63,365 bases of DNA from Phycisphaerae bacterium (GTDB lineage Bacteria; Planctomycetota; Phycisphaerae; Phycisphaerales; SM1A02), in assembly GCA_002862305.1 (NCBI GenBank), contig PKCS01000092.1:1-63365 (forward strand), written 5' to 3'. Position numbers and translations under genes: made by a program. Shown piece by piece: positions 25,051-63,106 of this stretch (the stretch's first letter is position 1; each line of letters begins with the position of its first letter). Below the pieces are notes generated by a model, which was not told where the DNA came from, ran no database searches, and saw only the letters and a list, made by a program, of their open reading frames with translations.

Positions 25051-25971
25051 CTATTCGAAGATCGCGTCGATGAAGGTGGCGGGATCGAACGGTTCCACGT
25101 CCTCGGGTCGTTCCCCCACGCCCACCAGCTTCACGGGGACCGAGAGCTGGTCGCGGATCGCCACCACGATCCCCCCACGCGCGGTCCCGTCCAGCTTGGA
25201 GAGGAACACCCCGGTGATGTCGACCGCTTCCTCGAAACTGCGGGCCTGGACCAGCCCGTTCTGCCCGCTGGTCGCATCCAGCACGAGCAGGACCTCGTGG
25301 GGTGCGCCGGGGATCTTCTTCCGGATGACGTCCCGGATCTTGACCAGCTGCCGCATCAGGTCGCCCTGGTTGTGCAGGCGACCCGCGGTGTCCACCAGCA
25401 GGACGTCGACCTTCCTCGCCAGGGCGGCATCCGCGGCGTCGTAGGCGACCGAAGCGGGATCGGACCCCTGGGCCCCCTTCACGATCGACACCCCGAGCCG
25501 TTCGGACCAGATCGACAGCTGGGCGACGGCACCGGCCCGGAAGGTGTCGGCGGCGGCCAGCAGCACCGATCGCCCCTCCTCCCGGAGGCTGTGTGCGATC
25601 TTGGCGACGCTGGTGGTCTTGCCCACGCCGTTGACGCCGACCACCAGGATGACGGTCGGGGCCTCCGGGGCGACGGCGATGCGACGATCGACGTCCTCCC
25701 AACGGTTCTTCAGGCTGGACTTCAGGTGGTCGAGGACCTCCTCGCCGGTCGAGATCCGACCTGCCTTCCAGTCCGCACGGAGGTCATCGACGATGGCGGC
25801 GGTCGCCTCCACCCCCACGTCCGCGCCGATCAGCATGGCCTCGATCTCCTCGATGAGGTCCTCGTCGAGCGAACGACCGGCCAGCACGGAGCGAAGGCCG
25901 CCACCCAGGCTTCCGGCGGTCCGGGCGAGCCCGCGGCGCACTCGGTCGATGGTCGACCTAAAGAGGCCCAT
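25051..25971 (-). CDS. ftsY: Signal recognition particle receptor FtsY
   Basis: SRP-family GTPase of 306 aa that delivers ribosome-nascent chain complexes to the membrane. The N domain helices come first. The G domain then has GVNGVGKTTSVAKIA (P-loop), DTFRAGAVAQL, VLLVDTAGRLHNQ, the LSKLDGTARGG guanine-specificity motif and VGERPEDVEPFDP near the end. It lacks the long acidic A domain of E. coli FtsY and starts with an amphipathic helix (FRSTIDRVRRGLART) that may bind the membrane directly. AAGGAG lies six bases before ATG. Confidence 0.96.
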   Translation of the reverse strand: MGLFRSTIDRVRRGLARTAGSLGGGLRSVLAGRSLDEDLIEEIEAMLIGADVGVEATAAIVDDLRADWKAGRISTGEEVLDHLKSSLKNRWEDVDRRIAVAPEAPTVILVVGVNGVGKTTSVAKIAHSLREEGRSVLLAAADTFRAGAVAQLSIWSERLGVSIVKGAQGSDPASVAYDAADAALARKVDVLLVDTAGRLHNQGDLMRQLVKIRDVIRKKIPGAPHEVLLVLDATSGQNGLVQARSFEEAVDITGVFLSKLDGTARGGIVVAIRDQLSVPVKLVGVGERPEDVEPFDPATFIDAIFE

Positions 25972-26030: not shown

Positions 26031-26462
26031 TCAGGCATGGTCACCGGGGGGGCCCTCCTCGAGCGTGGTCTTCCAGATCCGATCGAGCACCGCGTTGATG
26101 AAGGCCGGGCTCTTCTCGGTGCCGTACTCCTTGGCCAGCTCGACCGCCCCGTTGATCGAGCGGTTCCCGGGGGTCCCGACCTTCGTGATCTCGTGGAGGG
26201 ATATGCGCAGGATGTTGCGATCGATGACCGGCTGGCGGTGGGTCGGCCAGTCCGGGGAGCAGGGGGAGACCAGCCGGTCCAGCTCCTCGCGTCCCGACCA
26301 GGCCTGCACCGCGAGTTCGGCACCCCGGGCCCGCACCTCGGCCGGGAAGGGACCGTCCTCGAGCGATCGGATCACGGAGTCGACGTCGGGGTCGTCGAGC
26401 AGGTCGAGCTGGTAGAGCACCTGCAGTGCACACCGCCGGTCGTCGCGGGAGATGTCGGTCAC
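26031..26462 (-). CDS. nusB: Transcription antitermination protein NusB
   Basis: All-helical RNA-binding factor of 143 aa that, with NusE, assembles antitermination complexes on rRNA leaders. It has RDDRRCALQVLYQLDL near the start and the conserved RSINGAVELAKEYG...FINAVLDRIW at the end. The start is GTG and overlaps the ribH stop (GTGA), so translation is coupled. The ribH-nusB pair is a common bacterial arrangement and supports both calls. Confidence 0.92.
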   Translation of the reverse strand: MTDISRDDRRCALQVLYQLDLLDDPDVDSVIRSLEDGPFPAEVRARGAELAVQAWSGREELDRLVSPCSPDWPTHRQPVIDRNILRISLHEITKVGTPGNRSINGAVELAKEYGTEKSPAFINAVLDRIWKTTLEEGPPGDHA

Positions 26463-27058
26463 TCCTCCTCCTCGTACTCGTACTCGACTCCATCGTCCCC
26501 TTCCCCGTCCTCCTCGACGTACTCGTACTCCTCGACCTCCTCGTCGCCCTCGAGTTCCTCCTCCTCGACGTCACCCATGCCGTCGTCGAGGTCCTCCTCG
26601 ATCATCCGGATGGACAGCGCGCTGGAGATGGCCGCGGACATCGCCTCCTCGCCCTTGTTGCCCTTCTCGCCTCCGGACCGTTCGTAGCCCTGTTCCAGCG
26701 CGAGCACGGTGAGGAGCCCGAGCGCGATCGGGATCTCGTGCTCGAAGGAGATCTGGGCGATCATCCGGGTGACGGTGGAGCAGATGTACTCGTCGTGGCG
26801 GGTCTCCCCGCGGACCACGCAGCCGAGGACCACCACCGCATCGAGGTCCTTGCGGGCCAGGGCGTCGGCGATGGCGATGAGTTCGAAGGCGCCGGCGGCG
26901 ACCACCTGGTAGAGGTTCTCGGGATCCCCGCCGGACTCGACGAAGGCGGCCACCGCACCTTCCCGGAGGCGGTTGGTCACGTCCTCGTGGTAGAGGCTGG
27001 TGACCAGGCCTATGCGCAGGCCGGTCGCATCGAGGACGAGGTTGGGTGCATCGTGCAT
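26459..27058 (-). CDS. ribH: 6,7-dimethyl-8-ribityllumazine synthase with acidic C-terminal tail
   Basis: Riboflavin pathway enzyme that joins 5-amino-6-ribitylaminouracil with 3,4-dihydroxybutanone 4-phosphate. Family motifs: AGAFELIAIADALA, VLGCVVRGETRHDEYI with the catalytic His, and a GEKGNKGEEAMSAA phosphate-site helix. The usual enzyme is about 155 aa; this one has 199, because about 50 residues of almost pure Glu, Asp, Gly and Tyr follow (for example EEVEEYEYVEEDGEGDD). ATG 27058 has AAGGAG seven bases upstream. Lumazine synthases often form 60-subunit shells, so the tail may coat one face of the particle. Confidence 0.93.
   Translation of the reverse strand: MHDAPNLVLDATGLRIGLVTSLYHEDVTNRLREGAVAAFVESGGDPENLYQVVAAGAFELIAIADALARKDLDAVVVLGCVVRGETRHDEYICSTVTRMIAQISFEHEIPIALGLLTVLALEQGYERSGGEKGNKGEEAMSAAISSALSIRMIEEDLDDGMGDVEEEELEGDEEVEEYEYVEEDGEGDDGVEYEYEEEE

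Positions 27059-61605: not shown

Positions 61606-63106
<1,501 letters not shown>

What the first reader, a model, noticed from the sequence alone, without database searches (positions are those of the whole stretch)
26459..27058. Lumazine synthase with a ~50-residue Glu/Asp/Tyr tail
The catalytic domain is normal, but the C-terminus ends in an almost pure acidic stretch with regularly spaced Tyr-Glu. Lumazine synthase often forms hollow 60-mers, so 60 such tails would make a strongly negative shell face that could attract basic cargo or metals. I do not know of this in characterised enzymes.
Basis: partly seen in the sequence, partly recalled or inferred. Interest (0 to 1): 0.55.

Follow-up and report, generated by a model that had tools for sequence, protein, structure and literature searches.

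The report
Lumazine synthase with polyanionic outer tail
In a small group of marine Planctomycetota, the enzyme that makes the precursor of vitamin B2 carries a flexible, strongly negative tail that probably coats the outside of its hollow protein cage; the tail is real and conserved, but what it is for has not been shown.

Summary
RibH (window 27058-26459, minus strand, 199 aa) is a normal lumazine synthase (residues 1-157) followed by a 42-residue tail with 26 Asp/Glu, 4 Tyr and no Lys, Arg or His. It is neither a frameshift nor a sequencing error: all 7 genomes of one well-supported clade (5 of 5 in the window's genus, 2 of 2 in a sister genus) carry a homologous tail with conserved I(E/D)EDL and EYEY motifs and an acidic C-terminus, despite many synonymous changes. 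No other RibH match printed for the GTDB family has a tail of this length; shorter acidic tails occur in G030 and G334.

AlphaFold2 leaves the tail disordered, and published work places lumazine synthase C-termini on the cage exterior, so the tail would coat the outside, not the cargo-holding lumen. Riboflavin synthase of these genomes has no visible cage-localisation peptide and is itself unusually acidic, which argues against it being attracted cargo. The last tail codons double as a ribosome-binding site for the overlapping nusB gene. E/D/Y-rich segments also occur in FtsK linkers of this family.

Best guess: a protein-level, electro-steric outer coat that keeps cages soluble and apart. Function is untested.

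The parts
26588..27058 (-). ribH catalytic core, residues 1-157 (lumazine synthase fold)
   Evidence: Pfam PF00885 at residues 13-147, NCBIfam TIGR00114; AF2 10-residue block means 87-98 over residues 11-160; Foldseek best match Aquifex aeolicus lumazine synthase
26462..26587 (-). acidic C-terminal tail, residues 158-199 (26 D/E, 4 Y, no K/R/H); residues 162-199 predicted disordered
   Evidence: homologous in 7 of 7 clade genomes
26516..26530 (-). EYEYV motif (residues 177-181); EYEY is invariant in the six rows aligned and present in the seventh
26462..26485 (-). terminal EYEYEEEE (residues 192-199); the six relatives end in an acidic run plus Ala
26464..26472 (-). AGGAGGAGG inside the last Glu codons: Shine-Dalgarno-like site for nusB
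   Evidence: sequence; 6-nt Shine-Dalgarno match in 7 of 7 tail genomes against 4 of 32 relatives without the long tail
26031..26462 (-). nusB, GTG start overlapping the ribH stop (GTGA); not part of the tail but coupled to it
25051..25971 (-). ftsY, next gene in the same direction (context)

Best explanation
The tail is a genuine, intrinsically disordered polyanionic extension of lumazine synthase, gained once in the ancestor of this clade and kept by selection on the protein. The enzyme assembles into a lumazine-synthase cage (inferred) whose C-termini point outwards (published for other species), so about 60 tails form a negatively charged, flexible outer coat. The coat keeps cages soluble, apart from one another and from other polyanions by electro-steric repulsion (inferred). 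The last Glu codons also serve as the ribosome-binding site of the overlapping nusB gene (sequence pattern shown, use inferred). Shown: the tail, its homology in the clade, its conserved composition and motifs, predicted disorder and the nusB site. Inferred: cage formation in this species, tail position in this protein, and the repulsive function.
For: Homologous tail in 7 of 7 clade genomes; clade supported 100/100 in a RibH-core tree of 89 rows. Glu codon choice changes (from residue 149 on: GAG 19/GAA 2 in the window, GAG 8/GAA 14 in G003) while Glu stays; pN/pS in the tail is below 1 in all 15 pairs of six genomes, 0.10-0.83. AF2: core blocks mostly 94-98, tail blocks 54-61 with no secondary structure, last helix 135-161. 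Aquifex residues R29, E32, L121 of the pentamer-pentamer site correspond to R30, E33, L121, with no insertion in the 120-137 loop (read; site from PMC13376624, section 7). Termini outward, and added terminal peptides tolerated in 60-mers (PMC7369331, passages). RibH core and RS are also shifted acidic in the clade (medians -7.3 against -2.3 and -6.7 against -2.35 net charges per 100 aa), as expected if the proteins are made mutually repulsive rather than attractive.
Against: No particle, expression or assay data. Cage assembly is not shown; I125 is Tyr or Met and W137 is Glu here. Tail pN/pS is higher than the core's in most pairs and synonymous changes are near saturation, so the selection signal is modest. 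Repulsion does not explain the conserved Tyr or the EYEY motif, which hints at specific binding. FtsY is also more acidic in the clade (median -2.3 against +1.0), so part of the acid shift may be genome-wide, although NusB is not shifted that way.
Confidence: 0.45

Rival explanations
1. The tail is a docking site: EYEY-containing acidic segments are read by a specific, probably basic, partner that is brought to the outside of the cage (a flavin user, a transporter or a chaperone).
For: Conserved EYEY and terminal motifs in all seven tails; similar EYEY acidic segments in FtsK linkers of the same 7 genomes could share a reader.
Against: EYEY-rich FtsK linkers also occur in six relatives from six genera (G034, G111, G130, G024, G113, G095); five of these have a RibH match without a long tail and G130 has no RibH match, so the two traits are not tied. 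RS is acidic and carries no opposite-charge extension. No partner was searched for beyond RS.
Confidence: 0.2
2. Nearly neutral low-complexity growth: a GAG/TAC-rich repeat expanded at a permissive, outward C-terminus in a lineage prone to E/D/Y-rich segments; only the last codons, which form the nusB ribosome-binding site, are constrained.
For: E/D/Y-rich segments recur in the family; tail length varies 42-56 with indels and pN/pS reaches 0.83; the nusB SD is strong in 7 of 7.
Against: pN/pS below 1 in 15 of 15 pairs; conserved motifs about 20 and 40 codons away from the nusB start; net charge kept at -24 to -39 in the six measured; shorter acidic RibH tails in two other genomes.
Confidence: 0.2
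3. Cation store or sensor: the acidic Tyr-rich coat binds Ca2+, Mg2+ or Fe3+ and concentrates or buffers them around the cage.
For: Composition only.
Against: No His or Cys in the window's tail and no recognised metal-binding motif; the two downstream neighbours examined are nusB and ftsY, not metal genes.
Confidence: 0.08
4. The acidic codons act during translation: runs of Asp/Glu destabilise the ribosome and so tune translation of the coupled nusB.
For: The tail directly precedes an overlapping start codon; acidic runs do destabilise ribosomes (PMC9718836, abstract and passages).
Against: That effect is described for N-terminal stretches before the exit tunnel is filled; a 157-residue chain precedes this tail. 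EttA dependence needs acidic residues within the first 30 aa (PMC11282234, passages).
Confidence: 0.04

Closest known systems
Aquifex aeolicus lumazine synthase (AaLS; 1HQK, 5MPP, 9RYI)
   Same: Fold (Foldseek E=2.5e-14, TM normalised to target 0.91, 40% identity), gapless loop 120-137, counterparts of R29, E32, L121, H88 and R127
   Different: AaLS ends at residue 154 with no acidic tail; I125 and W137 are not kept here; AaLS has an RS with a cage-localisation helix
AaLS-neg and AaLS-13, engineered negative cages (5MQ3, 5MQ7)
   Same: Lumazine synthase made strongly negative
   Different: There the inner surface was mutated and the cages expanded (PMC7369331, passage; cargo details recalled); here the negative charge is natural and expected outside
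Acidic Tyr-containing tails such as those of alpha-synuclein and tubulin (recalled, no call)
   Same: Disordered, D/E-rich C-termini with Tyr
   Different: Unrelated proteins; no homology claimed
E/D/Y-rich linkers of FtsK in the same bacterial family
   Same: Same EYEYEYV(D/E)-type composition
   Different: Internal linker between membrane and motor domains, present more widely in the family than the RibH tail

Membership tests
6,7-dimethyl-8-ribityllumazine synthase (RibH) | Match to the family model over the whole catalytic domain | tested here: met
   PF00885 138 bits (cut-off 26.7), positions 1-135 of 139; TIGR00114 118.4 bits (cut-off 84.6)
6,7-dimethyl-8-ribityllumazine synthase (RibH) | Catalytic His88 and phosphate-binding Arg127 (roles recalled) | tested here: met
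   H88 and R127 invariant in all 25 aligned RibH rows
6,7-dimethyl-8-ribityllumazine synthase (RibH) | Enzyme activity | not testable with these tools
   No assay
Icosahedral 60-mer lumazine synthases | No insertion in the loop before the last helix (that an insertion here marks pentameric enzymes is recalled) | tested here: met
   Gapless alignment to AaLS through positions 112-147
Icosahedral 60-mer lumazine synthases | Pentamer-pentamer contact residues kept | tested here: inconclusive
   R29, E32 and L121 equivalents kept; I125 to Y/M and W137 to E
Icosahedral 60-mer lumazine synthases | Observed particle | not testable with these tools
   No biochemistry
CLS-type riboflavin synthase encapsulation | RS ends in an amphipathic helix with bulky hydrophobic residues (PMC13376624, sections 7 and 9) | tested here: not met
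   6 of 6 readable RS of tail genomes end within 18-25 residues of the VNLExD motif in ...LLERTPPxxx...LLERGGMRSG or ...LLEQRGLIxPG..., read by eye; the seventh (G003) is broken by N

The most novel reading that the evidence does not exclude
A natural lumazine-synthase cage that wears about 60 disordered EYEY-containing acidic tails as a functional outer corona, read by a partner or used to control phase behaviour of the riboflavin pathway, with the same E/D/Y code used in FtsK linkers of these bacteria.
Probability: 0.15. Interest if true: 0.7.

Novelty: new variant of a known kind. Interest (0 to 1): 0.4.

Why it matters
Lumazine synthase cages are a standard protein-engineering scaffold, and charged variants have been engineered. 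A natural lineage with a conserved negative outer coat would give an evolved example of surface-charge control on a cage enzyme, and a ready test case (with or without tail) for what outer polyanions do to assembly, solubility and partner choice.

Tried and rejected
Frameshift or assembly error: rejected, 7 of 7 clade genomes share the tail. That the clade is marine is my reading of some of those record names.

Basic extension on riboflavin synthase as a matching cargo tag: not found. Tail copied elsewhere in the genome: a 37-aa tail query found only itself (low-complexity queries may be filtered). Co-inheritance of RibH tail and EYEY FtsK linker: first looked perfect in 7 genomes, then rejected because relatives without the long RibH tail also have it. 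Ribosome destabilisation: considered and judged unlikely. Rfam on the window: no RNA element at ribH. Literature: searches 'lumazine synthase' with 'acidic tail' (0 papers), 'Planctomycet' (1), 'C-terminal extension' (6) and 'intrinsically disordered' (19, 10 listed) listed no title or abstract about an acidic lumazine synthase tail; only the open-licence library was searched and most listed papers were not opened. A search for solubilising acidic tails gave 0 papers. The SD score printed had a counting bug at the string end; one search replaces it.

Limits: print only about 150 matches each; the unprinted, lower-scoring ones were not seen, though a homologous tail raises the score. The pN/pS comparison used six of the seven genomes because the script missed G110. 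The RS charge comparison left out G003 of the seven tail genomes; one search prints a value for it that includes broken sequence.

Full report
What is there. On the minus strand the window carries ribH (27058-26459), nusB (26462-26031) and ftsY (25971-25051). RibH is 199 aa. Residues 1-157 are an ordinary lumazine synthase; residues 158-199 hold 26 D/E, 4 Y and no K, R or H. By K/R minus D/E counts the core is -13 and the tail -26, about -2300 for 60 subunits if a 60-mer forms.

It is not an artefact or chance. A search of 61 genomes put six tail-bearing RibH at the top; a profile search of the family (181 genomes, 171 with a match) gave seven rows that match the whole tail: five of five genomes of the window's genus and two of two of another genus (G110 read). 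The other printed matches end at position 172 or before. A maximum-likelihood tree of 89 RibH cores puts the seven on one branch with support 100/100 and a long stem of 0.65. All seven share an I(E/D)EDL junction, an EYEY motif and an acidic C-terminus, and six end in Ala. Codon usage shows selection on the protein: from residue 149 on, Glu is GAG 19/GAA 2 in the window and 8/14 in G003. pN/pS in the tail is below 1 in 15 of 15 pairs among six genomes (0.10-0.83), usually higher than in the core. Synonymous sites are close to saturated, so this is modest evidence.

Distribution. Among 98 distinct RibH strings from the loci then held, 68 have fewer than 10 residues after the core. The seven long acidic tails stand out; two more are shorter and acidic: G030 (same family; 32 residues, 14 D/E) and G334 (another family of the phylum; 34 residues, 19 D/E, with EVEYEDDD). 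Neither lies inside the branch of the seven; G334 is far away in the tree, while G030's place relative to the seven is unresolved, so acidic tails arose at least twice, perhaps three times. In G334's order, 1 of 13 matched genomes (G334 itself) has a match running past position 160. In the class search (397 genomes, 376 with a match, about 150 rows printed) no printed row without an internal stop passes position 162 except G000 and G010.

Where the tail points. AF2 with a 25-row alignment gives a confident core (mean pLDDT 86.9 overall, core blocks mostly 94-98), a last helix at 135-161 and an unstructured tail at 54-61. The closest solved structures are Aquifex lumazine synthase. [quoted passage not shown] The tail should therefore sit outside the cage. 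Whether this protein forms a cage is not shown: the loop has no insertion and R29, E32 and L121 equivalents are kept, while I125 and W137 are not.

Cargo. The known cargo is riboflavin synthase, anchored by a C-terminal amphipathic helix at the pentamer-pentamer interface (PMC13376624, abstract, sections 7 and 9, passages). The six readable RS of tail genomes lack such an end (judged by eye). They are more acidic than ten relatives (median -6.7 against -2.35 net charges per 100 aa), and the RibH core is too (-7.3 in 7 against -2.3 in 31). FtsY is shifted less (-2.3 in 7 against +1.0 in 29), FtsK motor little (-1.7 in 7 against -1.1 in 6) and NusB not at all (-4.4 in 7 against -5.6 in 30). LS and RS becoming acidic together fits repulsion better than attraction, but some of the shift may be genome-wide.

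Second role of the last codons. In all seven, nusB starts with GTG or TTG overlapping the ribH stop, preceded by a 6-nt Shine-Dalgarno match inside the last tail codons; 4 of 32 relatives without the long tail reach 6 nt, and their nusB often starts with ATG. This explains the terminal Glu run but not the other 30-odd residues.

A wider habit. A search for E/Y repeats in 12 genomes led to FtsK: all seven tail genomes have an E/D/Y-rich linker between membrane and motor domains (Pfam for G000 only). Of the 12 regions fetched from that search, 7 were FtsK; the other 5 were unrelated genes or short frames. Of 20 further regions chosen because they had hits, six are FtsK genes of relatives with such linkers (two checked with Pfam, the rest by a motor motif) and three are a protein with one hydrophobic stretch near its start and no Pfam match. 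So this composition is a habit of the family, and the RibH tail is one clade-specific use of it.

Reading. Most likely an outer, electro-steric coat kept by selection (0.45); docking of a partner and nearly neutral low-complexity growth are each about 0.2; metal binding and translational effects are less likely. The published ribosome destabilisation by acidic runs concerns N-terminal stretches (PMC9718836 and PMC11282234, passages). Papers were seen only as search listings, abstracts, passages and the named sections.

Noticed in passing
L026 and L176 (G051:C1, same order): RibH and NusB are fused in one open frame (about 205 codons after the RibH core, containing a NusB-like sequence judged by eye), with no stop between them.
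   Followed up: partly
L141, L142, L144, L146, L148, L149, L151 (tail genomes); L160, L161, L162, L165, L166, L168 (relatives): FtsK carries E/D/Y-rich acidic segments (for example DEYEYEYEYEDEDEDEDEEGDEDEYEYEYVDEEE) between its membrane and motor domains.
   Followed up: partly
L159:1672-2955(-), L164:1406-2758(-), L163:706-2052(+): A protein with a hydrophobic stretch near its start, no Pfam match, and a long E/D/Y-rich C-terminal part; unidentified.
   Followed up: no
L153-L158: Short open frames with very long Asp/Glu runs (up to 50 of 50 residues D/E/Y), no Pfam match in the three tested.
   Followed up: no
L173 (G334): RibH of a distant planctomycete family ends in a 34-residue acidic tail with EVEYEDDD, apparently independent of the window's clade.
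   Followed up: partly
window 61612-63106 (-): Complete bacterial 16S rRNA gene (Rfam RF00177).
   Followed up: no
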